A DNA stretch of 64,000 nt, taken from contig NZ_CP016443.1 in the NCBI RefSeq assembly GCF_001742165.1, forward strand, positions 1,550,001 to 1,614,000. Direction: 5' to 3'. A model generated the notes under the pieces. The model searched no databases and was not told the DNA's origin. It saw only the letters and a program-made list of their open reading frames with translations. The DNA comes from Burkholderia stabilis. GTDB taxonomy: Bacteria; Pseudomonadota; Gammaproteobacteria; Burkholderiales; Burkholderiaceae. Position 1 is the first letter of the stretch. The number at the start of each line of letters is the position of its first letter. Of this stretch, positions 22,540 to 45,500 are shown piece after piece. The translations under genes were made by a program, and so were the position numbers.

Positions 22540-23658
22540 TTACTTGGCGGCGGTCTTCGTCGCGTCCTTGTGCCACGTGTACACGACGAACTTGAACGCC
22601 TTCAGGTCGCCCTGGGCGTCATACGCGACCTTGCCGATCGGCGTGTCGAACGTCGTCTTGTGCATGTACGCGGCGACCTTGGTCGGATCGGTCGACTTCG
22701 CTCCTGCGATCGAGTCGGCGATGATCTTCACCGCTGCGTACGACGGCATCTGGAACGGGCCGTTCGGGTCGCGCTTCTTGTCCGCGAACGCCTTCACGAG
22801 CGCCGCGTTGGCCGGATCGGCCGAGAAGTCGGCCGGCAGCGTGACGAGCATGCCTTCCGAAGCCGGGCCGGCGATCGCCGTCACGTCCTTGTTGCCCACG
22901 CCTTCAGGCCCCATGAACGTGGCCTTCACGCCCTGCTCGCGCGCCTGGCGCATCAGCAGGCCCATTTCCGGGTGGTAGCCGCCGAAGTGGACGAAATCGA
23001 CGCCTTGCGACTTCAGCTTCGTGATGATCGCCGAGTAATCCGAATCGCCGGCGTTGATGCCTTCGAACAGGACGACCGGGATCTTCGCGGCTTCGAGGTC
23101 CTTCTTCACCGACGACGCGATGCCCTGGCCGTACGACTGCTTGTCGTGCAGGACGGCAACCTTCTTCGGCTTCACGTTGTTGATGATGTAGTGCGCGGCG
23201 GCCGGGCCTTGCTGGTCGTCACGGCCGATCGTGCGGAAGATGAAGTGACGCTTCTTGCCTTCGGTCAGCTGCGGCGCGGTGGCCGACGGCGTGACCATCA
23301 CGATGCCTTCGTTCTCGTAGATGTCCGATGCGGGGATCGTCGAACCCGAGCACACGTGGCCGATCACGTACTTGATCTTCTGGCTGACGATCTTGTTGGC
23401 GACGGCGACGGCCTGCTTCGGCTCGCACGCGTCGTCCATCAGCACGACTTCGAACTTGTTGCCGCCCGCACCGCCGGCCGCATTGATCTGCTCGATCGCG
23501 GTCAGCGCGCCGGCCTTCACCATGTCGCCGTACTGGGCGACCGAGCCGCTCATCGGACCAGCGATGGCGATCTTCACGGTTTCCGCTTGCGCGGTGGCGG
23601 CGCCGGCGGCGAACAGCACGGCGGCGACGGAAATGGACGTAAGACGGGACAGCGTCAT
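22540..23658 (-). CDS. livK: Branched-chain amino acid-binding periplasmic protein LivK
   Basis: This 372-aa solute-binding protein has a Sec signal peptide (MTLSRLTSISVAAVLFAAGA, cleavage after AQA) followed by the type I periplasmic-binding fold (VKIAIAGPMSGSVAQYGDMV; VVLMDDACEPKQAVAVANKI; GHVCSGSTIPASDIYENEGI). The conserved Cys pair around DDACEP and GHVCSG matches LIV-binding proteins. It is the first gene of livKHMGF, and the promoter should lie in the long upstream region. Confidence 0.93.
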   Translation of the reverse strand: MTLSRLTSISVAAVLFAAGAATAQAETVKIAIAGPMSGSVAQYGDMVKAGALTAIEQINAAGGAGGNKFEVVLMDDACEPKQAVAVANKIVSQKIKYVIGHVCSGSTIPASDIYENEGIVMVTPSATAPQLTEGKKRHFIFRTIGRDDQQGPAAAHYIINNVKPKKVAVLHDKQSYGQGIASSVKKDLEAAKIPVVLFEGINAGDSDYSAIITKLKSQGVDFVHFGGYHPEMGLLMRQAREQGVKATFMGPEGVGNKDVTAIAGPASEGMLVTLPADFSADPANAALVKAFADKKRDPNGPFQMPSYAAVKIIADSIAGAKSTDPTKVAAYMHKTTFDTPIGKVAYDAQGDLKAFKFVVYTWHKDATKTAAK

Positions 23659-24472
23659 CTGGGAGCTCCTCGATGTTGTTTAGTCATACGGGCAAAGGCG
23701 GCATGACTTGCGCAATCGAACAGCACCCGGGGCGAGGACATGGAACACGCCCGAGACACATAGAAGACGGAACTCCGGCGGAATGTTGCGTAGCGGGGCC
23801 CGGCTCTTGCAGTCCCCGAAGGGGACGTCTGGTTCGGAAAGACATCGTGATGCGTCTTGCATTGCGCAAGCGTTTCGCCTGCCCCGCTTGCCAAACCGCT
23901 TGATCGGAGGGATGGTCCGACAGCCGTTGGCAAGGCAGTCGAAATTATATGGGCGTTTTTAAATCGTCTGTCAAAAATGCCGGTCGACCAAGGGAAAACA
24001 CGGAGAACCTGTGTTGCGCTGCGGTAGCTATTGCGGCGCAACCGGGCGGGGGCGAGAACGTTTGCCGGGAGTGCAATCGGGTTGCTATGGCGGGGCGTTG
24101 ATTGGTGGGGTGCCTTGCTGTGTATGGCGTTTGGAGATCGGTGTTGGTGGACGGCGTTGTTTTGGGTTGCCAAGGGTCTGATCGTCGGAAGTCAATCGAC
24201 TGATGATTGTGGTGATACGCACCAAGGCGGAGCGCTCGATCCGGTCGGTCAATCCTGCTGTTTACCGACAAATCTAAACACTTGGAAAGCTTCTTGTTAT
24301 TTATATGAAATAATACGAATTCGCCTCTGCAATCCAGCCAGCCTTCCCGCGAACCGCGCCCGCCGCACTTCGCCGTCGCTTCAGGGCCGCTTAGACGCCC
24401 GTCCGTCGCTCAGTCTCGCCAGCCAGTGATCTGCCGTTTTCCTCAATGCACATCACCTGATTTGGATCGCTG
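23659..24472. other. Intergenic region upstream of livK and the exported protein gene
   Basis: These 814 bp contain no convincing gene. They must hold the leftward livK promoter and the rightward promoter of the exported protein at 24473. An AT-rich stretch (24280-24320) is the most promoter-like part for the rightward gene. Short open frames here overlap on both strands and have no family signal. Confidence 0.6.
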
Positions 24473-25093
24473 ATGAATCATCCCTTCCGTCTTTCTTCCG
24501 CTGCCGCGCTTGCGTGTGCGTTTTCTGTTTCTGCTGTCGATGCGGCGAGCCGCGATACGCTGGCCGATCGTTCTGTGGGTGCCAATGTGTTTCGTGCGGA
24601 ACGTGGTGCTGTGGCTCGTGATGATGGGCATGCGGCGCGTGTCGATCGACGCGCGAAGTACGTCGCGCCCGCTGAACGCAGCCCATTCGATACGCCTGAT
24701 ACGCGGCCGTTGCGTGTGTCGGGGGACACGCTCGAAGCGCAATCTCCGTCTGAACATGAAGCTGATTTTGTGTTGCCAGAGAACCGCGTCGCGCTCGGCG
24801 CGGGTGGCCGCGACAGTCTTGGTCGTGCGTTGCCCGGATATGAACAGCGCGCGCAGAACTGGAATGAATACCTGCGAGCCAATGGCACGCGGACGGCTGG
24901 CGGCGGCGGTGGCTCGTATGCGCCGACGCGGCCGTTCGATGCCGCGCGTGGCCCGCACGGTACGCCGAATCCGTTTGATCCGTCGGTGCCGCAACCGGAG
25001 ACTCGGACGTTCTTCGACAACGGCGCGGGGACGCATTGCACCGCTACAGGTGGCGCAGGGACGTCGCGGTCGTCTTGCAATATCGCTTGGTGA
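24473..25093 (+). CDS. Small exported protein of unknown function
   Basis: A 206-aa protein that I do not recognise. The N-terminus is a Sec signal peptide (MNHPFRLSSAAALACAFSVS, cleavage near VDA-AS). The mature part is hydrophilic and rich in Gly, Pro, Arg and Asn, with a central YEQRAQNWNEYLRANGTRTA, a poly-Gly run (AGGGGGSYAP) and a C-terminus with two cysteines (THCTATGG...SSCNIAW) that could form a disulfide. No membrane helix follows. It stands alone between two oppositely oriented genes. Confidence 0.6.
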   Translation: MNHPFRLSSAAALACAFSVSAVDAASRDTLADRSVGANVFRAERGAVARDDGHAARVDRRAKYVAPAERSPFDTPDTRPLRVSGDTLEAQSPSEHEADFVLPENRVALGAGGRDSLGRALPGYEQRAQNWNEYLRANGTRTAGGGGGSYAPTRPFDAARGPHGTPNPFDPSVPQPETRTFFDNGAGTHCTATGGAGTSRSSCNIAW

Positions 25094-25178
25094 TGCGCGG
25101 GGGCGGCTGATAGCGGCTGCCCTACCCGGCGCGCTGCGCGACGTCGCGCAGCGCGGCCGCATCGTGCGGCGTTGCCCG

Positions 25179-25400
25179 TTACAGCTGCGTGATGATCAGC
25201 CTGCCAGGCTCAATCGTGATCTGCACCTTTCGGCCCGGTTCGAAACACGCATCGTTGATCAGCCACATTCCGCCGATCTTCATATACGGATAAAACGTAT
25301 CCGGTCTGTCATACATGCGTTTCGGCACACCCCAGGATTCCTGGATCGTCACGAAGCGTTCCGTGATCGGGGGACGTGCTTTATCATTCGGCTTAGCCAT
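25179..25400 (-). CDS. SymE-like type I toxin
   Basis: A 73-aa protein ending in MKIGGMWLINDACFEPGRKV followed by QITIEPGRLIITQL. This is the SymE-type C-terminal module (AbrB/MazE-like fold; LxGxWLxxAGFxxGxxxxVxxxxGxLxI). SymE in E. coli is an SOS-induced toxin with nucleic-acid activity, kept off by an antisense RNA (SymR). The start is the ATG at 25400 with GAGAG upstream; a TTG at 25406 is possible. No antisense RNA could be confirmed by eye; the opposite strand at the 5' end is the place to look. Confidence 0.75.
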   Translation of the reverse strand: MAKPNDKARPPITERFVTIQESWGVPKRMYDRPDTFYPYMKIGGMWLINDACFEPGRKVQITIEPGRLIITQL

Positions 25401-25852
25401 GGGCAACTCTCTCGTAGTTGGCTGTGGTTAGCGGGTCGTGAGTGTTCCTAGCACTTGCGGCCCGCGCTCGTTTACCGCGGTGTTTTGATTTCTCGGATTC
25501 CTCCTTTGTTGGTTGTTCGGTGAAGCCACGGCTGCGGTGCGTAAACCGTGACCTGCCGCGTATCCGTTCACGCGCGCGATTATTACTGGCTGGACAGTGT
25601 CCATTAGACCGCATTTGTTGCTTGGATACACGTTAGCCGTTAGTTATAGACACACAATCGATTCAACTCTCATAGCAACTTAAAGCATTGATCACGCAGC
25701 AAAAAATAATCAGCACAACCATCGCCCTGTCGCAACGAGCCGAAACCTAAATTTGACGATTCGAAACAATTCAAATAAATCAATTCAACCATGCCAGCAT
25801 TAGCCCAAAGAATTCGACACATCAACCACAAAATCTCGCCCACCACCTTTAA
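25401..25852. other. Gene-free stretch upstream of the SymE-like gene
   Basis: These 452 bp hold the SymE-like gene's promoter region. Base composition falls sharply toward low G+C from about 25640 to 25850, marking the edge of a foreign segment. Overlapping short frames at 25393-25636 show no family signal. No tRNA or clear attachment site was seen. Confidence 0.5.
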
Positions 25853-26356
25853 TTAGAACACCAAGTCCGGAGCTCTCTCCCGAACCTTCGGTATGACATG
25901 ACTCAAAAAACACTCCACAAGTCCAAATATACTAATTGTTGTCTCCGGGAATTTGTCCGTTTCAACTTTTATATAAGTTACGATCAAATTAGATTCGGCT
26001 TGAATAAATATCTTTCGATGGTCCGCACTTGCATACCCCAACACGAAAGACCTCATGTGCATCAGTGCATTCAACGCATGACGATAGCTTTCCTCCCAGT
26101 TCCCAGGATCGCCTTCCGATATGTTTATGATTTTGTTATTTATTGAAGGAAATTTTTCATTCGTAATATCACAGAATTCATTCACCTTCCTTGCGTGAAA
26201 TCCGAATTCAAGCAAATCCGGCACGACAACTTCGCCCCAATTGCCGCTCCATTCTCCCGGGAAAACGGCTCCAGTGAATGCAACTAAACGTAGCGCATGC
26301 GACCGAGCTCGCTCAATGTGTATCTCGGTAAGTCTTCTGCGACTGCTCACCACCAT
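25853..26356 (-). CDS. Hypothetical protein in low-G+C island
   Basis: A 167-aa protein that I do not recognise. The ATG at 26356 has AGAGG five bases upstream, better than the GTG two codons earlier. It looks soluble, with no signal peptide. Visible features are a basic N-terminus (SSRRRLTEIHIERARSHALR), ALNALMHMRSFVLGYASADH and a C-terminal KVRERAPDLVF. Codon use is clearly AT-richer than the pyochelin and liv genes, suggesting horizontal transfer. It lies directly downstream of the NACHT/nuclease gene in the same orientation and could belong to the same accessory unit. Confidence 0.6.
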   Translation of the reverse strand: MVVSSRRRLTEIHIERARSHALRLVAFTGAVFPGEWSGNWGEVVVPDLLEFGFHARKVNEFCDITNEKFPSINNKIINISEGDPGNWEESYRHALNALMHMRSFVLGYASADHRKIFIQAESNLIVTYIKVETDKFPETTISIFGLVECFLSHVIPKVRERAPDLVF

Positions 26357-26552
26357 CTTCACCTCTATAAATTCTTATAATACGCCAAACGATTTAATTA
26401 ATTCACGTCGCGAGATGAAATCTCTTCAAACAAAGCTTCAATATTGATTCAGCGCCAGCCAGACTTGAATCAGCCCCCTTATCGCGCGTAGGCGATCACA
26501 CCCAATGCTACAGAGGGTTGCCTTAAGTTCATCAAACACGATAGCAAATACA

Positions 26553-29267
26553 TCACACTCGCGGCACAGTCTTCGCTTCCGTAGCAAGACGTGGCCGGAG
26601 ATCAAGCACCTTAGCAGTGACTCGCAAGCACCCACCCATATCGTGGATTATTCTAGTAGCCTCCTCATCAAGCATCGCTTGTAGCTCATCGACTCCTATC
26701 AACGTTCCAGTTTCCGGATGCTCCCATTTTCTTTCACCGGACACAGTCACGAGGAGACAACCGGAACGACTATTTTCCGCAGCCATATATTTGATAACGA
26801 GTTGATTTTTTATCGTATCACGCAGCTCACGACCAGACCATTTCTCACCAATCTTAAGTTCGATTGTGCTTTGCTGCCCTGACGAAGCCGCTCGAAGCCG
26901 AATATCGGTTTCCTTCTCATCCGCCGTGACTGCCTCTTGATCAACCGTATAAACGCTGTTCGACATGTTTTGTAACTCGTGTGCGATCAGTTGACGCATC
27001 ACCTTTTCTTCTTGGATCTGCGCCCACCCCGCCCGTGGTGAAACGTCCTGGAGAAGCAGATCGTCAAGATCATCCAATCGATCGAGGAGCAGCGAAAACA
27101 TGTCATCACGCGTCGTCGGTGACGCCTCCCCATGTAAATTTAATCCGGCTACACCCAACTCGGTAAATATGGCATCGTCCGCCTCTTCTGCTGCCTTTTC
27201 GCGAGCTAACGCCTCGACCCGATCGCTGAAATGAGCGAAAAGTGGGTCTGCCGACATCTCCAATTTCGCCACCCATGCGTCAGAGCCTTTCGCGTCGAGA
27301 ATTGCACCAAGCAATGCACTTCGCCCTGTCTGTGCGTCATCACGAGGTCCCGGAGAATAGGCTCCCTTGTGAAAAATATCGTCAGATGGCGGCACGTACT
27401 GATAGGCAAGTCGGACTAGACGCAAGAGCAAAGCCGGCGTAAATCTTGAGTTCTTCAAGTCAACTTGCAAACCACCGTTTCGGTCGCCAAACATGACGCC
27501 TATAAAGTTGATAGCAGCACCGGTAGCAACCGGCTCCAGTGTCGATAAGAGCCGTTCGAGAATATCGGTTCCAGCCGGTGGATCAATCTGCATCATGGTT
27601 GCCAGCCACATCTGATTTAGCGGGCGATCGTCAGCCACTTCCAATTGCCTCTCGGCTATGGCTCGAATATGCCCCAGCGATTTGTTATCACTATGCTTGA
27701 GCAGGATTTCAAGCACCCGTCCGAGTCGCCTCTGTGCCGCAACCTCGTCTTCGCCGTCACGAAGCTTGCTGGAATAGGAATCAAGCCAAACTCGCAGGCG
27801 CGGTAGGAACAGTTGCATGACGACGGCCGGCGCATGACTCACGGCCTGAAGAATAACGTCGAAGGTATGTTGCCCTGCAATCCTTTCGAGTTCGGCCGCT
27901 AGTTCAGGCCCCAACGTTCGTTCCACGGCAACCGGATGCTCGCTTGCGAGCGCCTCAAGCCATACGGGAAAGCCGTTCAATTCTATTGGCGCGTATCGGG
28001 TCGCCAACTCCGCTTCTTCGACAGTCAGCTTGCGCACCCAGCCAATATCCTCAGACTCCGCAGCGATCGCCGCCAAGCCGAGTTGCCACCGAATAAGGAT
28101 TGTGTTCCGTTCGTCGACAGGTCTTTCATACGGAAGCGTCGGACGGTCATTACGCCAAATCGTTTGCATACTAATACGCAAGCGATCAGCCACCTCCTTA
28201 CCAAAATACTGCTCAATGAAGCGCCGACTCCAACCAGACGCACGACTTTCGCCCCCAGATCGGCGCATTGCCTGCCATAGATTCCATGCAGTATTACCTG
28301 CTCGATCAGGACTGAAGGCGGTCTGCGGATCATCGGCGACCATACGCCAAAACGCCACCCATGATGCATGCCCCTTGGCCTTCCGAGCTTCCGCGACTTG
28401 ACTCTGTCGCTTGATCCTAGCTTCAAGTCTAGCCTCCTCAGGATCGATATTGCGAGGAGCAAGACGGCGATCGATGAGTATCGTCAGCTCTGGTCTGTCG
28501 ACGACATACTGTCTGAGATGTTCAATTTGCTCGTGTGGGGCACCTATACCATCCGAGATACCGCGCATTGATATCTCAAGCATCATCGTTCGCTCTAATA
28601 GTGAGCGATTCGAATCAGCCAGTATACGTCGCACCCAACTACCATCCTGCCTAAAACTAAGGCTGAGTGGACCTTCATGCAAAGCACGAACCAACCTCAA
28701 CCACGGATCTGCTTCCTCTCGCAGACCCGCCATAAAGGAATCGTCGGCCCAAAAAACCTTCTCGCGCAGTGGCGGATGCAACTCCGCGAGCGCTTCACGC
28801 AAGCTTTTCGATGGATTGTTATAAGAATATTCGTCGTTGTTAAGACGTAGCGAAATGACAGAGGAGCGCAGAATTTCGTCGCTCGTCTTACCGAAGTGGA
28901 TCAACTGAAGACATACTTCAGCGAGAAGAGGGACGAGATGAGCTCGCCCACTAATAAGATGCGGCCATTCTTTTCTCCAATTTAGATTATCAACAATGAG
29001 ATCTGTAATTCCAGGTAGTATGGCCTCCAAGTAATCAGGGGTAGTTTTCTTTTCACTTATCGGAAGAATCCATTCAATTTCGTCAATCTCCTCTCCAGAC
29101 TTCTGGTTGCACTTTAATACCTCACATAGTTGACCTGGCGTGATGTGATGCGGGAACAATCGCATGACTGCTCCGCGCACAAGCTCATCGGGCCATCGTG
29201 TCGAAGTACCAATTAGCGACTGCGCAAGTGTCTCAAGACGCGAATCGCCTAGGGAAACGCTGATCAA
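26553..29267 (-). pseudogene. C-terminal part of NACHT/nuclease gene, cut off by an IS element
   Basis: This 904-codon frame is the distal part of a gene interrupted by the IS at 29253-30462. Residues 1-6 come from IS-end sequence; genuine sequence starts at GDSRLETLAQ. Most of it is a long helical region with no repeat I can name. The last about 120 residues carry a PD-(D/E)XK nuclease pattern: D788 in ETDIRLRA, E803-L-K805 in STIELKIGEKWSG and a Q822-containing helix KNQLVIKY, like the Q/Y helix of RecB-type nucleases. Without the ATPase part it is probably not expressed correctly. G+C is lower than in flanking core genes. Confidence 0.75.
29253..29264. repeat. IS terminal inverted repeat (left)
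   Basis: GGAAACGCTGAT; its exact reverse complement ends the element at 30451-30462. It directly abuts the CTAG duplication at 29249-29252. Confidence 0.9.
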
Positions 29268-29383
29268 TGGACCAACTTCCGAAGTTGCAGGCGAGATGGC
29301 TTCAAATTTTCTGGATGACGAAGCGAATCGGCGCTCAATTCAGTGAATTTGGCGCGTAAGCGAGCCTCCCCTGCTCGCATTTT

Positions 29384-30376
29384 TCATACGCATGACGGAC
29401 TGCTCCCATGGACCGATCGCAACAGATTTCGCGCAATCACCAGATTCGCCAGAGCGAACAGGCTGAACAGTTGCGCGGTGTTCTTGGCCAAGCCCTTGTA
29501 TCGGGTCTTGCGATGCTGAAACAGATTCTTGACGATATGAAACGGATGCTCAACCCGCGAACGGATCTGCGCCTTGGTTCGCTCGAGCGCGATCACCAGG
29601 TCCTTCAGCGCTCCTTCTTGCATCGCCTTGATCTTTCCCCGCCTGGCAGCGACGTGCCACTTCACGGCCTTGCCCGCCATTTCCTCGCGCTTGTCGACGC
29701 CAATGTAGCCCGCGTCGGCGAACACCTGCTCTTCATGCCCGTGCAGCAGGGCATGAGCTTGCGATACATCCGACACGTTGGCCGCCGTGCCAACCACACT
29801 GTGAATCAGGCCCGAGTCGGCGTCGACGCCAATGTGGGCTTTCATGCCAAAGTGCCATTCGTTGCCCTTCTTCGTTTGATGCATTTCCGGGTCACGGCTC
29901 TTCCCGGCATTCTTGGTCGACGGCGGCGCTTCAATGATCGTCGCGTCAACCAGCGTGCCTTCCTTCATCATCAGCCCACGCTCGCACAGCGAGATGCCAA
30001 TCTCGTCGAACAACTTCCGTGTCAGTTCGTGTTCGATCAGCAGGCGCCGGAACTTCAACAGCGTGGTTGCATCAGGCACGTTCTCGATCGCCAGATCGAT
30101 GCCGGCGAAGGCTCGCAGCGTGATGCTGTCATACAGCGCGTCTTCCAGTCCTTCGTCCGACAGTCCGTACCACTGTTGCACGAAGTAGATTCGCAGCATC
30201 CGCTCAAGGCCAATCGGCGGGCGACCTCGCGTGCCCTTCGGATAGTGCGGTTCGATGGCCGACAGCAAGCGCTGCCACGGAACGACCTTCTCCATCTCTT
30301 CCAGGAAGCGTTGGCGCCTCGTCACTCGCTTCTTGCCTGCAATTTCCGCTTCCGCGAAGCCGATCTGCCTCTTCAT
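29384..30376 (-). CDS. IS5-family transposase
   Basis: A 330-aa DDE transposase. The N-terminal DUF772-like DNA-binding part (PHYPKGTRGRPPIGLERMLR, YFVQQWYGLSDEGLEDALYD) is followed by the catalytic domain with EGTLVDATIIEAPPS (first Asp), VFADAGYIGVDKREE (second Asp) and RSRVEHPFHIVKNLF (Glu in the Y/R...E region). Length and motifs match IS5-group transposases. The gene is intact within a complete element with intact ends, so the copy may still be mobile. Confidence 0.95.
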   Translation of the reverse strand: MKRQIGFAEAEIAGKKRVTRRQRFLEEMEKVVPWQRLLSAIEPHYPKGTRGRPPIGLERMLRIYFVQQWYGLSDEGLEDALYDSITLRAFAGIDLAIENVPDATTLLKFRRLLIEHELTRKLFDEIGISLCERGLMMKEGTLVDATIIEAPPSTKNAGKSRDPEMHQTKKGNEWHFGMKAHIGVDADSGLIHSVVGTAANVSDVSQAHALLHGHEEQVFADAGYIGVDKREEMAGKAVKWHVAARRGKIKAMQEGALKDLVIALERTKAQIRSRVEHPFHIVKNLFQHRKTRYKGLAKNTAQLFSLFALANLVIARNLLRSVHGSSPSCV

Positions 30377-30450
30377 CGTCGTGGGTCCGTTCCGTGAGCT
30401 GTCTTCTAAACGTCCTCGGCTACGTCTGCGATGACCGCCGAGCCGAATAA

Positions 30451-30462
30451 ATCAGCGTTTCC
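30451..30462. repeat. IS terminal inverted repeat (right)
   Basis: ATCAGCGTTTCC, the exact reverse complement of the left terminus, next to the CTAG duplication at 30463-30466. Confidence 0.9.
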
Positions 30463-32152
30463 CTAGGCTGACCAACGCATCAATCGCACCGAGACGCTCG
30501 CCGTTCGTAGCCAACTCATCAATTACAACATTGTGAGCAATATCAGCACACTTCGCCATTAATCCTGCGCCAATTAGATCAAGTAGCAACTCGCGCACTT
30601 CAGCATTCTCGATTCCCGTACCCCATAGGTCCCTGACCGCATCAGCCAAATCAGCAGACGCAAATCGACGTACTTGTACATGGGGAGTGTTCAGGCCGCG
30701 CCAGCCCCCTTGTCCGTAGACGCATACGAAGCGGCTCAATGCATCGACGCGCTGCTGGAGGCTTAATGACTCTGGATCGCCATAAGCCAATAGCACCCCA
30801 GGCTCGCGGTCGCGAACCTCAGAGAAGACACTTTGATTAGACGCAGCAAGCCACGCTGCTACTGGACGCATATTTGGTCGGACCACCTTTATGCCGTGAG
30901 ATGTTTCCGTAAGCAGTAGACGCTTGACTGCCTTAATCGGCATGCCGTGATTCAAGCGATTCGCGAGACGGTGCGCCGCTAAAAATTCAACCACGGAGCG
31001 GTGATGAAAGCGTACCCGCCCATAGCTTGCAAACCCAAACAACGCTCTTTCCAGCAGCGTTTCACGCTCCTCTGGAAGCCAATCATGCAGCACGATGTCT
31101 GGATCTAGCGCGCTACCGGTTTCTCCTCCACGATCAGCGTCAACACTCAGTCTGATTGTCAGTTTTCGAGTCAGTAGCGCCGCGAGGGCGAGCCGACTCG
31201 CTCCTTCCAGTGCCTTGTCGGGTGACAGTTGCGCCGGTTCTCGACGGTCAACAGCGGGTTTGAGCTTGACGCGAATGTTCTGGTCCACTTGCTCGCGGTG
31301 CGTCCGGATGCGGCGATGTTCACGCCAGTCCGCACACAACTCGATGAGATCTTGTGGACGGCGCGCAAAATCCTCTGCATTACGCACCCGGATATCAGTG
31401 AGCAAAGCGTCCGCATCCTCGATACCTTCGGCTGCCGCCATCTCCCGGATTTGCTCATCTGAAAGCGGCATCAGTGCGACGGTACGCCAAACCGGTGTAA
31501 TGTCTTCTTTCGTTTGACGAGAATGCTGTTTTATGTGTCCCGTCGCGATATCGGCAAACGCATCACCGCTCGCAACGAACTCTACCGGATCCGGTACTGG
31601 CAGATATTCCCGGATAAGCTGCGAATCCACTGAAATCGGCCGCGTCGTAATGACGATCCGTATACGGCCAAGTTGGCCGGAAACGGCCTTACTGAGCCGC
31701 TTTAATGCTGTCTCGAATGAGCCTTGGGAGAGCTTAAGCTCATCAATCGAATCGAGAAAGAACGTAGCGACATCCGACTGCGCAGCGACCCATGCATCGA
31801 GCCTGCTCTCTTCCTCCATCGACAACAGATCACGCAAGTTATTAGTCGAGAGCTGCGCCAAATCCAGGTAGAACGCAGGCTCCCCCTGCTTCCACAACCT
31901 CCTTTGCTGACTACGGCATTCATGTGTCTTTCCCGCACCAGCTTCAGAGACAATCAAAATTCGTTGCGATTTGAGTAGTTTTTCCCAACCATAGGCTCCT
32001 GACCAGCCCGTGCGGGCCAGCATCAACACACGTTCGATATCCGCAGATTCGTCCTGGGAAAGATCTCCGAACGTTCGCTGAACACTACGCTCGGACTCGT
32101 CCAACGATTTGATTGTCATCATATATGGCATGGGCAGCAAAGGATTGATCAA
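30452..32152 (-). pseudogene. N-terminal part of NACHT/STAND ATPase gene, cut off by an IS element
   Basis: A 566-codon frame whose last residues (KR-stop) come from the IS end; genuine sequence stops at ALVSLG. It carries a NACHT-type NTPase: Walker A IVSEAGAGKTHE (about residues 67-78), Walker B with acidic tail ATFFLDSIDELK (about 129-140) and sensor RIRIVITTRPISV with Arg171. A helical region with RFHHRSVVEFLAAHRLANRL, typical of the winged-helix end of NACHT modules, follows. Joined to the frame at 26553-29248 it gives a 1461-aa protein. NACHT proteins of this kind are often anti-phage sensors. The start is uncertain: TTG at 32152 or ATG at 32131, 32122 or 32119, none with a clear ribosome site. 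Confidence 0.8.
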
Positions 32153-32450
32153 TACTATACTGATTCAACCCTTCATCGTTGAACGCTCAAGCTCATAGTG
32201 CGCCATCACATCTTGGAAACTGCAAAGTATTACTTAAATTCTTATTTTCCAATACCCACTTCGAGCCACATCTCAGAATGTCAATCAGCGATCCGGTTAC
32301 TACATTGAGCACCTGCGGCACTTCCCCCTCTAGGCAAACGCCAGTATCCGTGCAGCACAGAACGGACGGGGTTACGTGATAGCGAACGACCACGTGTAAT
32401 CACTGTCCACACATGCATGGTTTTTTGCGCTCCCCAATCTTCACGTCGAT
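32153..32450. other. Non-coding stretch between the NACHT gene and yfiB
   Basis: About 300 bp of mixed composition. It must hold the leftward promoter of the NACHT/nuclease gene. Short frames on both strands overlap each other and show no family signal. It marks the switch back from low-G+C accessory DNA to high-G+C core DNA. Confidence 0.45.
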
Positions 32451-32960
32451 TTACCTCGGCGAAACCACAATCGCCGCCCTCCGATTCTGCGCCCTCCCCC
32501 CCGGCGTCTTGTTATCCCCTACCGGATCACTCTTCCCCTTCCCGAGAACCGTAATCCGCTTCGCATCCAGCCCGATATCCACCAGCTCGATCGCCACCAC
32601 CTCGGCCCGCCTTCTGGACAACTCGAAGTCATAGTCATCCACACCTTCTCCGTCCGAATAACCATAAACCCGCACCCCGTTAATCCCCGCCGACTTGAGC
32701 GTGCGCCCGATCCTTTCGACGATCCGCCGCACATCCGGCTTGAGGTTATACCGATCGAAGTCGAACAGAATCGGCCCGGTCGACCCGAACTCGAACCCCG
32801 CTCCAGTCTCCTGGAACCCGGCCGACTTGAGCGCCGTGACCTGCGTCTGCGTCAACCCACGGTGAAGCGGCGGCGTCTTGCAGCCGCCAAGCAGCATGCA
32901 CAGCAGCAGCGCGCTGCCGATGCACATCCGCCCAATGCTCACAGGAAACGAGTTTTCCAT
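32451..32960 (-). CDS. yfiB: OmpA-family lipoprotein, YfiB-like
   Basis: A 169-aa outer-membrane lipoprotein: signal peptide with lipobox LLGGC (CMLLGGCKTPP) followed by an OmpA-like peptidoglycan-binding domain (ILFDFDRYNLKPDVRRIVER; VYGYSDGEGVDDYDFELSRR; VLGKGKSDPVGDNKTPGGRA; NRRAAIVV). In the P. aeruginosa YfiBNR system YfiB sequesters YfiR and so releases the cyclase YfiN. It lies downstream of the yfiN-like and yfiR-like genes in the same order. The ATG at 32960 fits the AAGGGG ribosome site better than the one at 32963. Confidence 0.85.
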   Translation of the reverse strand: MENSFPVSIGRMCIGSALLLCMLLGGCKTPPLHRGLTQTQVTALKSAGFQETGAGFEFGSTGPILFDFDRYNLKPDVRRIVERIGRTLKSAGINGVRVYGYSDGEGVDDYDFELSRRRAEVVAIELVDIGLDAKRITVLGKGKSDPVGDNKTPGGRAQNRRAAIVVSPR

Positions 32961-33044
32961 CATGTACCCCTTCGAGTGCGCCCGTGTCGCGAGCGCATTG
33001 TTATCGTCTGCCGCGGCCTCGCCCGCAGCGCGAAACGATAGCCA

Positions 33045-34313
33045 TCAAGCCGATCCTGCAACGCCTTCAGCCAACTGCCAGGAACCCGGCCGCGCTCGCT
33101 TGGCGCGGTACATCGCGGCATCCGCCGCGCGCAGCAGGCCGCTCGCGTCCGACGCGTGATCGGGATACAGCGCAACGCCGGCACTCATTATGGTGGCCAC
33201 CATGCGGCCGTCGGACAACTCGATCGACAGCGCCATGCCGGACAAAATCTCGTCGGCGACACGGCAGACGGTGCCCGCTTCGCGCACCCCCGCCAGCATC
33301 ACCGCGAATTCGTCGCCGCCGAGGCGAGCGACCAGATCGGCCTCGCGCACCTGCGTGCGCAGCCGCGCCGCGATGCCGATCAGCACCGCATCGCCGGCGT
33401 CGTGGCCGAGACAATCGTTGATCTCCTTGAAGCGGTCGCAGTCCAGATACAGAATGCCGACCCGCTGGCCCGTCACCCCGGCGTCGCAGAGCGCGAGCGC
33501 GAGGCGCGCCTCGAACTGCACGCGATTGGGCAGGCCCGTGAGCGCATCGTGCGTCGCCTTGTGTTCGAGCGACGCGTTTTCGTCGCGCAGCGTGTTCTGC
33601 CAGTCTTCGAATTCGTCGAGCAACGCATTGAAGTCGTCGCCGAGCTCGTTCAGTTCGGCGATCGCGACGGGCTCCACCCGTTGCGCGAACGCCCGCTCGC
33701 GACGCACCGCGTGGGCCACGCCGGCCAGCGCGCGCAGCGGCGAAACGATGTTGCGCAGCAGACGCTTCGAGCTGACATACGCGCCGAACACGCTGACGGC
33801 CAGGCAGCCGAGAATGCCGCTGACGCCGCCGAGCAGGAAGCCGAAGAACTGGTGCCCGCGGCCGCGCACGACGACGTTGCCGACGATGATGCCGTCGTGC
33901 ATCACCGGGACGGTCACGGGCCCGGGCAGCGCAAGGTCGGCGACGGCGCGCTCGAGCCGGGCGATCCCGCCGCCGGCGGGCAACTGCCACGTCGCGAACG
34001 GCTGGCCCTTGCTATCCGTGACCACCACCTGCGCGACGTCCTCCTCGCTGGCGATCAACCCGATCGCCTCGTTCGCCGCGACGCGATCGCCGAACACGAG
34101 CGCCGCCTCGACGGTATAACCGAGCGAGCGGGCCAGCAGGTTCAGGTTGTTGCCGGCATACGCGCGCAACGCGATCACGGCGACGACGATCAACGACACG
34201 GCGGCCATCGTCACGGCGACGAACGCGAGCCGCAGGTGCGCGCGGCGCAACACGCTTTGCAGCGTCGGGCGCGCCACGCGCGAAGGGGAAACGTGAGGCG
34301 CGAACCGTGTCAT
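33045..34313 (-). CDS. yfiN: Membrane diguanylate cyclase, YfiN/TpbB-like
   Basis: A 422-aa inner-membrane diguanylate cyclase. An N-terminal helix (LAFVAVTMAAVSLIVVAVIA) is followed by a periplasmic sensor of about 120 residues, a second helix (FGFLLGGVSGILGCLAVSVF), a HAMP-like linker (SPLRALAGVAHAVRRERAFA) and a GGDEF domain with THDALTGLPNR, ILYLDCDRFKEIND and an intact active site VARLGGDEFAVML. It is translationally coupled to the upstream yfiR-like gene (ATGA overlap). In this system YfiR binds the periplasmic part and inhibits cyclase activity. Confidence 0.88.
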   Translation of the reverse strand: MTRFAPHVSPSRVARPTLQSVLRRAHLRLAFVAVTMAAVSLIVVAVIALRAYAGNNLNLLARSLGYTVEAALVFGDRVAANEAIGLIASEEDVAQVVVTDSKGQPFATWQLPAGGGIARLERAVADLALPGPVTVPVMHDGIIVGNVVVRGRGHQFFGFLLGGVSGILGCLAVSVFGAYVSSKRLLRNIVSPLRALAGVAHAVRRERAFAQRVEPVAIAELNELGDDFNALLDEFEDWQNTLRDENASLEHKATHDALTGLPNRVQFEARLALALCDAGVTGQRVGILYLDCDRFKEINDCLGHDAGDAVLIGIAARLRTQVREADLVARLGGDEFAVMLAGVREAGTVCRVADEILSGMALSIELSDGRMVATIMSAGVALYPDHASDASGLLRAADAAMYRAKRARPGSWQLAEGVAGSA

Positions 34314-34912
34314 GACGCCCCCGGCCGCCGCGCAAGATTGAGCACGTTCGGGTGCACTCGCACGCCGCTGCGCGCCACGGCGTCGAGATTGATGTCGAAC
34401 GACACGCGTTCGCCGTCGACATTGAGGCAGAACATACCGCCCGCGGTGCAAGACGGATCGTGTTCCGCGATCGTCAGGACCGGATGGCCGGCTACCGCGG
34501 CTCGCACCCGCGATCGCTCGTCGTCGCTCAGGGTGCCGAGATAGACGACGTCGCAGGCCATGCCGAGCGACGGATCGTCGAAGCGGACGCGCTGCACGTC
34601 GAGCAGCGTCGAGCCGGCCTGCAGCGTGTCGGTCAGGCCGCGCGCGTAGTCGGCTCGGCCCGTGACGCAGAGATGCAGACGGACGGGCGTCGTCGGCCAG
34701 CGCGTGAAGCTGATGATGCCCAGCACGACCTGACGCACGGCGGTGTCGTGTGAAGAAATGGAGGGGTCGGTGCTGCTGGGGGTGCTGCTTGCGGGGCTGA
34801 CGATGCGGACTGCGTCGATCGGATCGTCCGTGTTGGCGGGGGCGCCGGCGAGCACGGCGGGCACCGCGCCCAGCGCGCAAACGATTGCCAGAAGAGCGTG
34901 GCGCAGTGACAT
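34310..34912 (-). CDS. yfiR: YfiR-family periplasmic repressor of YfiN
   Basis: A 200-aa periplasmic protein from the ATG at 34912 (signal peptide MSLRHALLAIVCALGAVPAV, then LAG). The YfiR-family core is visible: SFTRWP near the start of the mature domain, LHLCVTGRADYA, LGMACDVVYLG, a SCTAGGMFCLN hairpin and VSFDINLDAVARSGVRVHPN with LNLAR at the end. Four cysteines are spaced as two disulfide pairs, as known for P. aeruginosa YfiR. The open frame extends to 35020, but the internal start gives the signal peptide. It is the first gene of yfiR-yfiN-yfiB. Confidence 0.87.
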   Translation of the reverse strand: MSLRHALLAIVCALGAVPAVLAGAPANTDDPIDAVRIVSPASSTPSSTDPSISSHDTAVRQVVLGIISFTRWPTTPVRLHLCVTGRADYARGLTDTLQAGSTLLDVQRVRFDDPSLGMACDVVYLGTLSDDERSRVRAAVAGHPVLTIAEHDPSCTAGGMFCLNVDGERVSFDINLDAVARSGVRVHPNVLNLARRPGAS

Positions 34913-35344
34913 GCCGCGGCCAGGTCGGCCGGACATCGTCCGCGCGGCGATTGCCGCCGCGCCAGTCGGCGTCGTTGCAGTCGCAAGACTGGCAGCCGAC
35001 GCGCACACTTTCGCAACCATGATGGAAACATCCGCTGGCGTCGGTTCCGGCGCTGCCTGCTATCACCAGCCATGCGCGTGCAGGCACCGTATCACGCGCA
35101 TGATTCCTTCATCTTAGGTACAAAGCCGCGTGGGGAACCAGTGGGAAACACCCGTGAAGGATGTTGATTTGTAAGGGGAATTGGCGGGGGTGCGTGACTA
35201 TGCCGACGACCTTCTTTCGCGTCGCTTTGTCAGTCTTCGCGCTTGGGAATTGATCTGCGGATTGGGTGGGCGGGCGCTTCAAACTTCATACGTTCTTCAC
35301 CGATGCCGGACCGTGCTCCGAACTTTTGCGCCTGCCATGCTGAG
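34913..35344. other. Intergenic region upstream of yfiR
   Basis: These 432 bp hold the yfiR promoter region and the end of the CDI array's last immunity candidate. Short open frames show no family signal. Confidence 0.45.
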
Positions 35345-39074: not shown

Positions 39075-39512
39075 CTATTTCGTCTTGTCAGTTACTTGCT
39101 TCGTATGTCCCCAAGGAAGTATTCCGAAGGTGATTGAGCCAGGCTGCCCGACACCGAACTCAATTGCCGTGGCCCCACCATACGCATGTGTAATCGCAGC
39201 AATCGCGTTAAAACCAAATGGCGTCGGAATAGAAACAAATCCTTGTGCACCATCTCCGGCCAAGAAATTACGCGCTGCTTGCGCGCTATTTGCTCCGATG
39301 ATATATCCAACCGTACCACTCACTCCAGGCCTGAATGTGACCGAGGACGGATTAGCCATTACAACGCCTCCGCCGACATAGAAGGAATTATCGTAGAGAT
39401 TAATTGCTCCCGTTGCATTCGCAGATAGTGAACCAACGTTTACGGTCGCATAATCTCCCGCCACCCCACGGCCTGCCGTTCCAAGTCCAGCCGAATAATC
39501 CCCGTGTTCCAA
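39075..39512 (-). pseudogene. CdiA toxin tip, out of frame with the rest of cdiA
   Basis: This frame encodes the apparent true end of CdiA: GDYSAGLGTAGRGVAGDYAT, VNVGSLSANATGAINLYDNS, FYVGGGVVMANPSSVTFRPG and PFGFNAIAAITHAYGGATAI, ending GHTKQVTDKTK. It joins the main frame at GWNTG if one G is added to the GGGG run at 39500-39503 (plus-strand CCCC). As it stands the main frame ends 60 bases later with unrelated residues. The tip resembles orphan tip 3. The small immunity candidate follows by 8 bp. Confidence 0.65.
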
Positions 39513-42500
39513 CCCGGAGCAAACGGATCCGCAGGAAGTGTTGGTGTCGAGTTTGCCTGTGCCGCTTCTGGAGACTGCACATTCCAGCTGTAGGGCGAGT
39601 TCGTCCCACCGGTGTTCTGCTGAATCAGATCCATCACCGTCTGCGACGGAGGCGTCAACATCGACGGATCTTGGACCAGATAGCTTTTACCAGCACCGTC
39701 GTTGGTCACTTTCATGCCCGTCGAGTCGTACACTGCGCTCGCAGATGTGTTCACATTCAGCGGCACAATCATGCCAGTTGTGATCGATTCACCATATTGG
39801 CTATTGTTCGCCGAGCGCATCGCGTTTTCAATCTGATTAACTGTAATCGACGAACCATCCGGGTTCGTAATGCCTCGAGCCTTCGCGGTGTCGACAATCT
39901 TTTGTGCGGCTGTCTTTTCCTGCGGATGAAGTTGCCGATTAAACCGATCCACCCCCGCCCCACCCAACGCGCCAGCCCCACCACCAACCAACCCACCCAC
40001 ACCACCCGCCAACACATTTGCGGTCAAATTCCCCAACAGTTCATCGACATTCTTGTTCCCCGTCGGCCCGGCATCCTTGATCGACTTGGCGATCTCATTC
40101 AGTTCCGGCGCGAGCTTCGCCGACAGACCAGCCCCGGCCGCTCCCCCAAACGCCCCCAACCCGCCACCCGTCAACCCACCCGTCAAAGCCCCACCCGCAG
40201 CATGCAACCCGACGCGATTCGCACCACCTTCCGCCCACGCATTGGCTTCTAGCTCGTACTGCGCCTTCAGCTCCGGATCACTCGCCTTGCCCGCCGCCTC
40301 ACGCGCCGCCTTCTCCTTGCCATCCGCATAGTTGCCAATCTGCTTCGCAACCGCCTCAGCCGCCGCCTGCGCCGCATTGATCAAATCCGACTGACTGCCC
40401 AAAACCTGCTGCAAATCCGGCGTCTTGCTCACCGCACCATTCAGATTCGACGTATCCCGCTCCAGCGCCGCCAGATCCTGCTTCTGATTCGCCCGATCCG
40501 TGATCTCGATCCCGCCCGCACTGATCGCACTCTTCGTCGTCGCATCACTGCTGCCGCTCTCGCTCACATAAAGCGGCAACGCGCCGCCCGTGTTCTTCCC
40601 GCTCGTCGCCCCATGCGTCGCGTAGTTGTTGCCGCCATTGCCGACCCCACCGCCCGCACTGACCCCGAAGCTGCTCGCGTCGTATTCGGAATGGTTCTGA
40701 ATATCCGAGAACGTCAGCGTCCCGGTCGTCAGCCGGTTTTTGTCCGGCGTCGCGGTGCTCGCGATATACGCGCCCTTCAGGTCCGTATTGCCCTTGACCG
40801 TGATATCGAAACCACCGTCTCCGGCCTGAATGCCCGACTGCTCGTTCACGCCCGCATAGCTGCCGCTCGCGCGACCGTTCTGCATGCTGACGCTGGCACT
40901 CGCACCGCCCATGCTCGCGCTGAGCCCGCCGCCCGCGCTGCTTTGATGGGCCGCGCTCGTGCTCGTATCCTGCACCGACGCAAGATTCAGATCGCCGCCG
41001 ATATCCGCGAGCACCTTCTTCGCACTGACGTTCGCGCCGACGATATGGGTATCGCCGCCGCTGACGATCCTCACGGTGTCGCTTGCATTGACGTGCGTGT
41101 TGTTCTGCGTGGCCGCATCCGAATTCGCATCGCCATGCGCCCGCGACATCGACGCCGACACGCCAAACCCGCCCGTGCCGTATGACACGCCCACGCCCGC
41201 GCTCTTCGACGCGTTCGTACTGCGCGTGCTGTCGGTATCCGTGCTGTTGACCAGATTGACCTTGTCCGTCGCCTTCAGCAGCACGTCCTTTGCCGTGACG
41301 TTCGATCCCTGGATCGTCACGTTGCCCTGGCCGTCGTTCTTGTCACCCGTTGCCACGAACGCGGCCGTGCCGCCGGCCCTCACGCTACTGCCGTTGTTTT
41401 GCGTACTGCGTTCGGTGAACGTCGTCTTGCTATGCGACGAGCCGAAGCTCAGTTCAACTTTGGCGTCGACCTTGCCCTTCGGATCGTTCAGCGCCTTCGT
41501 CATGCGCCCTGTCGCGTCGACCAGATCGGCCATGCCGCCCGCCGCCGCAATCGCATGCAGTGCCACGGCCCGTCCGTCCTGGCTGCCGCCTGCGCCCTGT
41601 GCCTGCTGATTCACGTTCTGGATCGCATCGATCGTCGGCGACTTCACCGCCAGCGTGAAACCCGAACTCTTCACTTCGCGGGTTTCTTCGTGACGGCGAT
41701 CCGTCTGCGACGCGTCGATCGTCACTTCCTTCGCCACACCCGTCACATGCTGGCCCGCGACGATGTCCGAGCCCGTCACATGAAGCTTGTTGCCGGCCCG
41801 CATCGAAACACTGCCATCCACGCTGCCGATCAGGCTGCCCTGCGAACCCTTCACCGTATCGCGGCTGGTATCGATCGTCTGGTTCGTGCCATACGAGATC
41901 CCGGCGCCCGCGCTGCCGAGGCCGGACTTCTTCACGTCCTGGTAGTGAGATTCGCTCGAGGCCGTGTCTGCGGTCGTGATTCTCAGATCATGGCCAGCCA
42001 CGAGACTGACGTCTCCGGTGGCGGCAATCGTCGCCGCCTTCGCCGTCAGGTCGTTGCCGGCCGCCACATCGACCGTATGACCCGACAACGTCGTGCCAAC
42101 CGCGCGCGTGTAGCTGCTCGAATCGATCGTGTGCGTCGATTTCGACGACAGGAAGCCGCTCTCCTTCCGATAGTGCTCGTCGTTCGCGCTCGCGCTTTGC
42201 TCACCGGCGTTCAGGTTGACGTCGCGTCCGGCACTCACGCCGAGCGCGCGTTGCGCGTTCGCATAAGCGGCCGTCGCATTCACGTCGCGGCCGGCCACGA
42301 TCGCGAGGTTGCCACCTGATGCGATCTGCGTGCCCGTATCGATCGACGCGGAATGCTCCGCATGGTTGCGGTCGTCCCACTTCACCGCGTCCCGGCTGCT
42401 CTGGCGAACCGCGTTCAGATTGACGTCGTTGTCCGCGGCCAGCACCGCATGGCCGGCAGCCGCAACGACGGCAGCATTGGCGTTCAGATCGCGGCCGGCA

Positions 42501-45500
42501 ACCGCCTGCAGCGTGCCGGCATTGATCGTCGATACGCGATCGATACCCGTTGCGCTGCCGTTCTTCGCCGTCGCCGAGCTTGTGGTGCTCGTCAGGTTGA
42601 TGTCGCGCCCGGCCGACAGCGCCACCGTATTGCCCTGGATCAACCCGCCAAGATTGTTCAGATCCTGGTTCGCCCGCGCGATCACCGCGCCGCCCGACAC
42701 CGTGCCGCGGTTATCGATCGAATCGGTGCGGATGATCGTGACGTTGCGGCTCGCGATCGTGCCCGAGTTCTCGTACGCGCCGTCCGCTTCGATCGTCACG
42801 TTCCTGCCGGACAGGATCGTGCCTTCGCCGGTCACATCCGCGGCATTCGTGTGCAAATACACCTGCGGCGCCAGCACCGTCTGCCGGCTGCCATCCGGCA
42901 GCGTCACGGTCTGGTTCACGAGCCAGACGATGTCGCTCGTCAGCGCGGCCATTTGCGCATCGGTCAGCGCCGTGCCGACGTTCAGCCCGAACTGCCGCGA
43001 CGCCTTCACGCCGCTCGCCATCAGCGCTTCGTATTCGCGCTGGTTGTCGGTGTAGTCGCCGATGAACCGCTGCCCGGCCGCCTGGATGATCTGTTGCTGA
43101 ATCAGCTGCTGCTCGTAGAAGCCATCGCCGATTCGCTTAAGGACCGTATTCGGCTCGACCTTGAGCGCGGCCAGCATCGTGTCGCTCGACAGCCATTTCC
43201 GGTAATCGGTAAAGCGCGGGTCCGTCTCGATCAGGAAGCGGCTGCCCGGGTCGGTCGTCACCCGATACAACGCGTTGTTCGGTACGCGCGTGTTCGGCGT
43301 CACCGTTCGCACGACGACTCCGCCCACGTTCGCCTTCACCGCCGACACGGTCTCGCCGCCGACGCCCGCCATGCCCGCGCCGATCGACACCTGATCGCCG
43401 ATCTCCTTGCCGGCGACCGGCGTCACCCCCGTGCCGGTCGTGCCTTGCGCGGCAGAAGCGGCGGTCGCCACGCTCTTGACCGGACTGGACGGCGTGCCCG
43501 GATCGGTCAGCACCACCGGCAGATCGATCGTTTGCGGCGGAATGGCCGGCGAGTAGTCGGCCGCCGACGATTTGCGCTCGTCGCCGTGGAATGCACCGGC
43601 CGACTGCACCCATGTGTATATCGCCTTCCCCGATCCCGTGAACGTTTCGGTGCCGGTCGCACCGATGTTCTGCACGTTGCCTGGTTTGTTACCGTCGCCG
43701 GCGACGATCTGGCTCTTGTCGTTGATGCCGGAACGCGTATCGATCGTGATATGGCGGCCCGCGGTGATCGTGCCGGGGCGCGATGCGGCGACGACATCCC
43801 TGGTCGATTTCACGTCGACCGAATAGACCGTGTAGGTCTCCACGAGCCGGCCCGACACGTCGCCGTTATACGCGGAGACCGCCTGGTTGAGGTTCTGGTA
43901 GGCGGTGACGGTCGCCTTGAACCACTGCTGGAACGGTGCACACGCCGCATGGGTCGAGGTCATGCACGACGGGCTCTTCGGCCCGAAGATCGGCGGCTTT
44001 TCTCCGGTCATGTCGGCTTCGGTCGGCGGCTTGACGGCGAACCAGTCGTTGCCGACGCCCCGCCTGCCGGACCATATGGACCCGGCTATCGACATCATGA
44101 ACGGCCCTTGGGCAATCCACACCGGGTTCGCGTCCGGCGGCGGCGCGACGCCGAACTGCGTCCAGATATCCGCCGGTACGTTCCGATATGTGCCGGTCTG
44201 AAATGCGATGGTTTCCGAGCTGAAGCGATTGGCCGGATAAGCCGTCTCGTCGATCTTGCCCGCGACGCCGTTCATCGTGAATCGCGCGTACTCGTCGAAC
44301 GGATAGGTCGGCGACGGCAGCAGAATGAATTTCTGATCGTCGTCCAGCGCCCACTGGTATTCCGTGCCCGGACGGATCTCGTGGCTGTTCTTCTGATACA
44401 GGTAGACGGTCGACGGGTCGATCTTTTCCGTCGAGCCCGGCATCTGATACCACAACTGCTTGCCGCTGTCGGTCGTGACCGTCGACGTCCGGAAGTCGGC
44501 GTTCAGGTTCTCGAACCGGTTTGCGTCGATCGTGATGTCGCGTCCGCTGTCGATCTGCGCGCCATCGTTCGTCACGGTCTGCGCGGCGGCGGTCGCCTGA
44601 CGATTCGCATCCAGCGCGCCGCCGATGCGGATATCGTTGCCCGCGTAGATCAGCGCATCGTTCCGGTTCGTCAGCGTCTGCGCGCCGATGTCGAGATCGA
44701 CGCGCGATGCGATGACGCCGCCGGTGCCTTGCTCGTTCCGGTCGTTGATCACCGTGTTGGCGCCCACTGCTACGGTATCGCCGAAGATGCGGCCGCCTGC
44801 GTTCGTGACAGTATCGCCGGCCGTCACCGTCGTTTTGCCGCCGTCGATCAAACCCTCGTTCGTTATCGATTGGTCCGCGTGAATGTCGGCAGCGTTGCCG
44901 CCGAAAATCTCGCCGGTCGCACGGTTCCGGATGGAAACCGCAGCCACATTCGCAGCGTTGCCCGCCGACAGCGTTCCGCTGTTGTCGAGCACACCGCCAG
45001 CCGTGGCCGTGAGATCGTGACCCGCGACGATCTGGCCGCTGTTGGCCAGATCACCTTGCGTCGTCACGCTGACGTCGCCAGCCGACTGGAGTTTTCCGTC
45101 GTTGTCGAGTGCGACCGCCGAGACTGTCAGTTGCCGGCCGCCGTTGATGTCGCCGTGACGATTGACCAGCGTATTCGACGCAACCAGCGTTGCCGCGCCC
45201 TTCGACTGGATGCTGCCCGACGTGTTGTCGATTGTCGGCGCGGTCAGTTTCGCATCCTGGTCGGTGCGAATCGAGCCGCCGGTATTGTCGAGCGCCTGGC
45301 TTGCGACGACGGCGACGCTCGCGCCTTCCATCCCTGCGATCAAGCCGGGCACGCCTGCCGTGGTAGGCAGCGTCGCATTGCCGGTCTGCGCATTGCGGAT
45401 CGTATCGCCCGTGACCGACAGCACACCACCCGCGTGCATGGCCCCGCGCGTGTTGTCGACGGTCGTACCGGACACGGTTACGTTGTCGTTGCCGCCGATC

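What the first reader, a model, noticed from the sequence alone, without database searches (positions are those of the whole stretch)
26553..32152. IS5-family element interrupts a 1461-aa NACHT/nuclease gene and its removal restores the frame exactly
The two flanking frames end and begin at the element ends. CTAG is duplicated at 29249-29252 and 30463-30466. Joining 30463 to 29248 reads SLGDSRLE in one frame and gives 4386 nt (1461 codons plus stop). The gene was therefore intact until a recent insertion, and an undisrupted homologue should exist. NACHT proteins are frequent anti-phage sensors, so this strain has probably lost a defence system.
Basis: seen in the sequence. Interest (0 to 1): 0.85.

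Follow-up and report, generated by a model that had tools for sequence, protein, structure and literature searches.

The report
Jumping gene breaks phage-defence gene hyoA
A common mobile element has recently landed inside the only copy of a known bacterial anti-phage gene in this genome and cut it in two, so this strain has very probably lost that defence; the event is real but of a familiar kind.

Summary
The element is ISBmu2 (IS5 family, 1210 bp, 100% identical), one of 16 full-length copies in an 8.5-Mb, three-contig, Burkholderia-type genome, and is flanked by a CTAG duplication. The two halves match the two parts of one NCBIfam family, HyoA (NF058534, 'NACHT domain-containing antiphage protein'). 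A natural uninterrupted protein exists (P0001, 1454 aa); the halves match its residues 1-556 and 558-1454 at 100%, so the insertion is recent. No other HyoA match was found in the genome, so the function has very probably been lost (inferred, not tested). The insertion parts the NACHT ATPase from most of a helical-repeat region and a C-terminal PD-(D/E)xK-like domain. IS knock-out of defence genes is published, so this is a new case of a known kind.

Two side results are more interesting. A B. glumae plasmid hyoA is interrupted in 19 of 20 records (two independent insertions), against 0 of 27 for an equal stretch nearby; a phylum survey does not show such a trend. In a HyoA-like branch (4 loci) the nuclease-like domain is missing and a Fic gene lies directly upstream.

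The parts
30463..32131 (-). N half of the interrupted hyoA: NACHT/STAND ATPase and the first helices of the repeat region (likely start ATG 32131; open frame begins at TTG 32152)
   Evidence: (712 bits, model 2-537)
26553..29248 (-). C half of the interrupted hyoA: helical-repeat region and C-terminal PD-(D/E)xK-like domain, ending in the native stop
   Evidence: (798.5 bits, model 544-1430)
29253..30462 (-). ISBmu2 insertion sequence, 1210 bp, transposase in the same direction as hyoA
   Evidence: 16 full-length copies; 100% to ISBmu2 in B. multivorans ATCC 17616 records
29384..30376 (-). IS5-family transposase, 330 aa
   Evidence: DDE_Tnp_1; NF033581, 359 bits, cut-off 140
29249..29252 (.). 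target-site duplication CTAG, one copy
30463..30466 (.). target-site duplication CTAG, other copy
29253..29264 (.). terminal inverted repeat of the element, one end
30451..30462 (.). terminal inverted repeat of the element, other end
31925..31948 (-). P-loop (Walker A) SEAGAGKT; G, G and K of the loop invariant in 54 of 54 aligned rows
31736..31762 (-). Walker B region FFLDSIDEL; the D residues invariant in 54 of 54 aligned rows
26556..27044 (-). C-terminal PD-(D/E)xK-like domain: D781, E796-x-K798, Q815 and Y820 of the C half invariant in 54 of 54 aligned rows
   Evidence: the name is inferred from motif and order of predicted strands and helices

Best explanation
A single-gene anti-phage system of the HyoA family was recently knocked out by transposition of ISBmu2. 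Shown: element identity, 4-base target duplication, frame arithmetic, a 100% identical uninterrupted allele elsewhere, family assignment of both halves, and no second HyoA match in the genome. Inferred: the intact protein is a STAND-type sensor and effector in one chain. The helical-repeat region detects infection, the N-terminal NACHT ATPase switches and oligomerises, and the C-terminal PD-(D/E)xK-like nuclease then attacks DNA. The insertion lies just after the ATPase module, so the ATPase is parted from most of the sensor and from the whole effector, and defence is lost.
For: Element and duplication. Family: both halves; intact allele above cut-off. Intact allele. Single-frame relatives: 12 of 28 matching Burkholderiaceae genomes; 11 of the 12 other matching genomes of the phylum sample; 5 of 6 loci. 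Only copy: and for the related EruA model. ATPase and domain order.
Against: No function was tested. Neither Pfam (at E 0.01) nor PADLOC recognises the gene. The nuclease assignment rests on invariant residues and predicted secondary structure; solved-structure searches with the C half gave only repeat proteins and none by sequence. The source strain of P0001 is not shown, so its locus could not be compared. A natural two-gene form exists in a side branch, so parting the ATPase from the rest need not always be fatal.
Confidence: 0.9

Rival explanations
1. The halves still work as a two-piece protein: the N half from the native start, the C half from transposase read-through and a TTG inside the element end, mimicking the natural two-gene form.
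For: Transposase and hyoA are co-directional. A TTG at 29267 in frame with the C half has GGAAG eight bases before it. Two genomes carry a NACHT gene and a repeat-region gene separately.
Against: No promoter-like site was found at 28900-32800 (0 found, 2.3 expected in shuffles). The natural split lies earlier in the protein (model about 460, against about 540 here) and comes with a Fic gene and without the nuclease-like domain. No expression data were seen.
Confidence: 0.04
2. The insertion is a reversible switch: the element leaves precisely in some cells, and the population keeps a working copy.
For: The duplication and both halves are undamaged.
Against: All 15 scored copies in the genome have both duplications in place, and nothing here shows excision; precise excision of such elements is generally rare (recalled, no call).
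Confidence: 0.02
3. Assembly error: one of 16 near-identical copies was misplaced here.
For: Multi-copy elements are a known source of misassembly (recalled).
Against: Matching 4-base flanks at this copy and at the other scored copies, and both neighbouring halves identical to one intact protein; a misjoin would not be expected to give this.
Confidence: 0.02
4. The two frames were always two genes and the element lies between them.
For: A two-gene form exists in a side branch and one locus (L015) lies in two frames.
Against: P0001 is one 1454-aa protein identical on both sides; most full-span relatives are single open frames.
Confidence: 0.005

Closest known systems
HyoA, NACHT domain-containing antiphage protein (NCBIfam NF058534)
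   Same: Both halves match it, together over model 2-537 and 544-1430; the intact allele exceeds the curated cut-off.
   Different: Here the gene is interrupted, and each half alone lies below the cut-off of 1200 bits. The founding paper was not found in the held library (one search listed 10 of 20 papers).
EruA, NACHT domain-containing antiphage protein (NCBIfam NF058535)
   Same: Partial match of the N half (96.7 bits) and of P0001 (147 bits).
   Different: Far below its cut-off of 1000 bits; a relative, not the family.
bNACHT and AVAST (Avs) STAND proteins
   Different: bNACHT proteins are described as effector-first and sensor-last (PMC12169576, passages); here the ATPase is near the N-terminus and the nuclease-like domain is last. 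No PADLOC match.
ISBmu2 (IS5 family)
   Same: 100% over 1210 bp. PMC3091744 (passages) gives 1210 bp, a 330-aa transposase, CTAA-type targets and nine copies in ATCC 17616, and cites Ohtsubo et al. 2005 (not held) for more transposition of ISs in that strain at high temperature.
   Different: 16 full-length copies here; CTAG is the commonest of the 15 scored duplications.
IS inactivation of defence genes (PMC10359306; outline with abstract, and section 14)
   Same: Natural IS insertions in cas genes, and IS1/IS10 insertions in 12 other defence gene clusters.
   Different: What I read there does not name HyoA or ISBmu2; the whole text was not read.

Membership tests
HyoA (NF058534) | whole protein above the curated score (1200 bits) | tested here: met
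   Met by the intact allele P0001 (1528.3 bits), not by the window's halves singly (712 and 798.5 bits)
HyoA (NF058534) | one uninterrupted gene | tested here: not met
   Interrupted by ISBmu2 in this genome; it is a broken member
HyoA (NF058534) | protects against phage | not testable with these tools
   Family name only
NACHT/STAND ATPase | Walker A and Walker B, NACHT fold | tested here: met
bNACHT / AVAST | N-terminal effector ahead of the NACHT module | tested here: inconclusive
   P-loop begins at residue 62 counted from the ATG at 32131, leaving little room for an effector domain; residues 1-15 of the model are of low confidence
PD-(D/E)xK nuclease | D ... ExK motif on the core strands | tested here: met
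   D781, E796 and K798 in 54 of 54 rows; strands 782-785 and 792-799 and helix 805-820 in the model
PD-(D/E)xK nuclease | match to a solved nuclease | tested here: inconclusive
   Whole-C-half searches were filled by repeat proteins; sequence search with the last 163 residues gave only E >= 0.81
IS5 family (ISBmu2) | DDE transposase of the IS5 type | tested here: met
   NF033581, 359 bits against cut-off 140
IS5 family (ISBmu2) | terminal inverted repeats and 4-bp YTAR-like duplication | tested here: met
   13 of 15 scored duplications fit YTAR, two are CAAR

The most novel reading that the evidence does not exclude
hyoA is a costly, self-harming defence gene that Burkholderia lineages repeatedly switch off with insertion sequences (ISBmu2 here; an ISNCY element and ISBugl2 in B. 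glumae plasmids), and the family is a sensor chassis whose killing part can be exchanged: a C-terminal nuclease in the same chain, or a separate Fic enzyme encoded just upstream.
Probability: 0.2. Interest if true: 0.55.

Novelty: new member of a known kind. Interest (0 to 1): 0.35.

Why it matters
It is a clean natural knock-out of a little-described antiphage NACHT protein, and an identical intact allele exists, so near-identical strains could show what the protein does. The B. glumae plasmids give a second natural series (one uninterrupted record, 19 interrupted) for asking whether such genes are costly to keep. The apparent swap of a nuclease-like domain for a Fic protein in a HyoA-like branch, if it holds over more loci, would point to the C-terminal domain as the effector.

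Tried and rejected
Literature for HyoA and EruA: no paper held HyoA with NACHT, or two of HyoA, EruA and antiphage; (Hyo with defence terms) gave none on it; one search found 20 papers with either word, of which the 10 listed hold no HyoA (the other 10 were not seen). EruA in PMC12839154 (listing only) is a differently named E. coli regulator. PMC13092281 (passages) does not hold 'Hyo' or 'Eru'. So the founding paper of HyoA was not seen.

Pfam and PADLOC gave nothing for either half or the 169-aa neighbour; NCBIfam did for the halves.

Idea that hyoA is commonly broken: not supported in general. Phylum sample: 13 of 398 genomes match at E <= 1e-60, this one included; of the other 12, 11 are full-length open frames, one (G1095) is partial, none is in two pieces. 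Burkholderiaceae sample: 28 of 398 match at E <= 1e-20: 12 full-length single frames; this genome in two pieces; G346 and G079 two-gene forms; G345 with stop codons and only to model 1161; G313 in three pieces; G088 and G316 C-terminal parts only; nine distant relatives matched over part of the model. The B. glumae excess rests on two insertion events, can be drift, and its plasmids carry an IS5 element in the intergenic stretch beside the control segment too. In 19 of the 20 B. glumae records one search counts a second, unlisted place, which I did not look at.

Idea that the locus is a pure defence hotspot: only partly. Of 11 cargo ORFs that I picked from many and scanned, one is OLD/GajA-like and one has a weak Mrr_cat match; the others are VgrG-like, RHS, AMP-binding, AAA or unassigned.

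(446-aa NACHT protein): 290 proteins among 7998 scored; 110 of the 120 listed have 440-450 aa, but fused proteins are outside that search's length limits, and neighbours were read at few loci only. In one search, 9 of 369 genomes match, this one included; the three best are fused forms.

Full report
OBSERVATION. The window is G000:C2:1550001-1614000 in an 8.53-Mb genome of three contigs. The genus is inferred to be Burkholderia: the element is 100% identical to ISBmu2 in B. multivorans ATCC 17616 records, and three large replicons (3.9, 3.3 and 1.3 Mb) fit; the tools name no organism for the genome. Two minus-strand open frames, 30452-32152 and 26553-29267, meet the element at 29253-30462. CTAG lies on both sides at the stated positions. 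Of 16 full-length copies in the genome, 15 could be scored and all 15 have matching 4-base flanks; 13 fit YTAR and two are CAAR. The coding lengths on either side, leaving out the element and one duplication, sum to 4386 nt, a multiple of three (arithmetic only).

WHAT THE GENE IS. Pfam at E 0.01 and PADLOC find nothing in either half. NCBIfam places both in one family, NF058534, 'NACHT domain-containing antiphage protein HyoA': 712 bits over model 2-537 for the N half and 798.5 bits over 544-1430 for the C half. A search with the C half alone returned 347 proteins with E <= 0.001 among 7995 scored candidates, 120 listed. The best, P0001, is an uninterrupted 1454-aa protein that scores 1528 bits against the cut-off of 1200. 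The N half matches its residues 1-556 and the C half 558-1454, each at 100%, leaving exactly the one residue whose codon is interrupted. So an intact allele exists and the insertion is recent. P0001's start corresponds to the ATG at 32131. No other HyoA match was reported for this genome, and the one EruA-model match is this same gene.

RELATIVES AND SETTING. In a Burkholderiaceae sample, 28 of 398 genomes match the model at E <= 1e-20, 12 of them as one full-length open frame (the other 16 are itemised under Tried and rejected). In a phylum sample, 13 of 398 match at E <= 1e-60, this genome included, and 11 of the other 12 are full-length open frames. Of 65 genomes of the genus, 5 match the N half, this one included; the other four are 24-33% identical. 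Six loci of other genera were found with the C half: five single frames and one, L015, in two overlapping frames. HyoA is therefore sporadic. That fits the low G+C of the segment (about 0.45-0.59 in 1-kb windows from 25.5 to 32.5 kb, against 0.64-0.70 in much of the flanks) and the variable interval in which it sits: between the genes at 22540-23658 and 33045-35020 the distance, taken by hand, is about 9.4 kb here and 2.2 to 19.4 kb in 14 of 18 same-genus relatives; the other four had the flanks on different contigs or no strong right-flank match.

COULD THE HALVES STILL WORK? The C half could in principle start at a TTG at 29267 inside the element end, with GGAAG eight bases before it, on read-through from the co-directional transposase gene. 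No promoter-like site was found in 28900-32800 (0, against 2.3 expected in shuffles). I give this 4%.

PARALLELS. IS inactivation of defence genes is known: PMC10359306 (abstract and section 14) reports natural insertions into cas genes and IS1/IS10 insertions in 12 other defence clusters. A second natural series turned up here. A B. glumae plasmid relative (L069 3601-7935), found through an interrupted copy that matches the HyoA model in two pieces (1194 and 365 bits), occurs in 20 plasmid records and is interrupted in 19. Seventeen are listed with an ISNCY transposase; I read two of these, L079 and L082, each with a 5-base duplication. One more, L080, holds an internal piece of the same element at the same point, so it very probably descends from the same event. 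One, L017, holds ISBugl2 with a 4-base duplication. The one uninterrupted record is NZ_CP100148.1. A control segment of equal length, about 1.7 kb away on the same plasmids, is in one piece in 27 of 27 records. This is suggestive, but it is two events, and the phylum survey shows no general trend.

SIDE RESULT. In G346 (L044) and G079 (L045) a HyoA-like protein is split into a 446-aa NACHT protein and a 790- or 791-aa repeat-region protein in genes overlapping by 4 bases, after a likewise overlapping Fic-like gene (408 and 407 aa) and without a match to the nuclease-like domain. The Fic-like protein of L044 matches the PADLOC model SoFic at 77 bits. Two Rhizobium plasmids have a 74-75% identical Fic gene followed by a fused NACHT and repeat-region protein, again without that domain. 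Four other loci related to the 446-aa protein (L083, L084, L085, L088) have the nuclease-like domain and no Fic match; the six loci with 10-kb flanks and two B. glumae loci have no Fic match either. The effector thus appears exchangeable, on 4 loci against 4. A paper search on NACHT with Fic domain listed none whose title or abstract start describes this (10 of 17 listed, none read for this).

VERDICT. The finding is correct and well read. It is a new instance of a known event in a known family. Interest is modest for the interruption itself and higher for the two leads it opened.

Noticed in passing
L044 201-5133; L045 2706-7638; L081 3817-8720; L087 3832-8717: A Fic-like gene overlaps by 4 bases a HyoA-like NACHT gene (split from its repeat-region gene in L044 and L045, fused in L081 and L087), and the C-terminal nuclease-like domain is not matched: an apparent effector swap.
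   Followed up: partly
L069 3601-7935; L017 3613-8864; L079 4501-10527; L080 4501-9836: A B. glumae plasmid hyoA relative is interrupted in 19 of 20 records (ISNCY lineage 18, ISBugl2 one) and uninterrupted in one; an equal control stretch is in one piece in 27 of 27.
   Followed up: partly
window 23658-33045: Variable interval between two conserved flanking genes: about 9.4 kb here, 2.2 to 19.4 kb in 14 relatives, with mixed cargo including an OLD/GajA-like gene and VgrG-like genes in some.
   Followed up: partly
G000:C3:1125787-1128209 (L028, L042): Two ISBmu2 copies lie head to tail, sharing one CTAG between them.
   Followed up: no
G000, seven places: A second element group, 83% identical to ISBmu2 over positions 91-1210, in seven copies; possibly ISBmu23, which is 83% identical in plasmid records (inferred).
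   Followed up: no
L015 8318-12707; L046 2436-5774: Other hyoA relatives not in one clean frame: two overlapping frames in L015 (Neisseriaceae bacterium TC5R-5); a stop near model 300 and no match beyond about 1123 in L046.
   Followed up: no
window 25853-26362, minus strand: A 169-aa ORF of low G+C just downstream of hyoA without a family match; passenger or partner unknown.
   Followed up: no
window 39440-48652, minus strand: A 3070-aa open frame, not examined.
   Followed up: no
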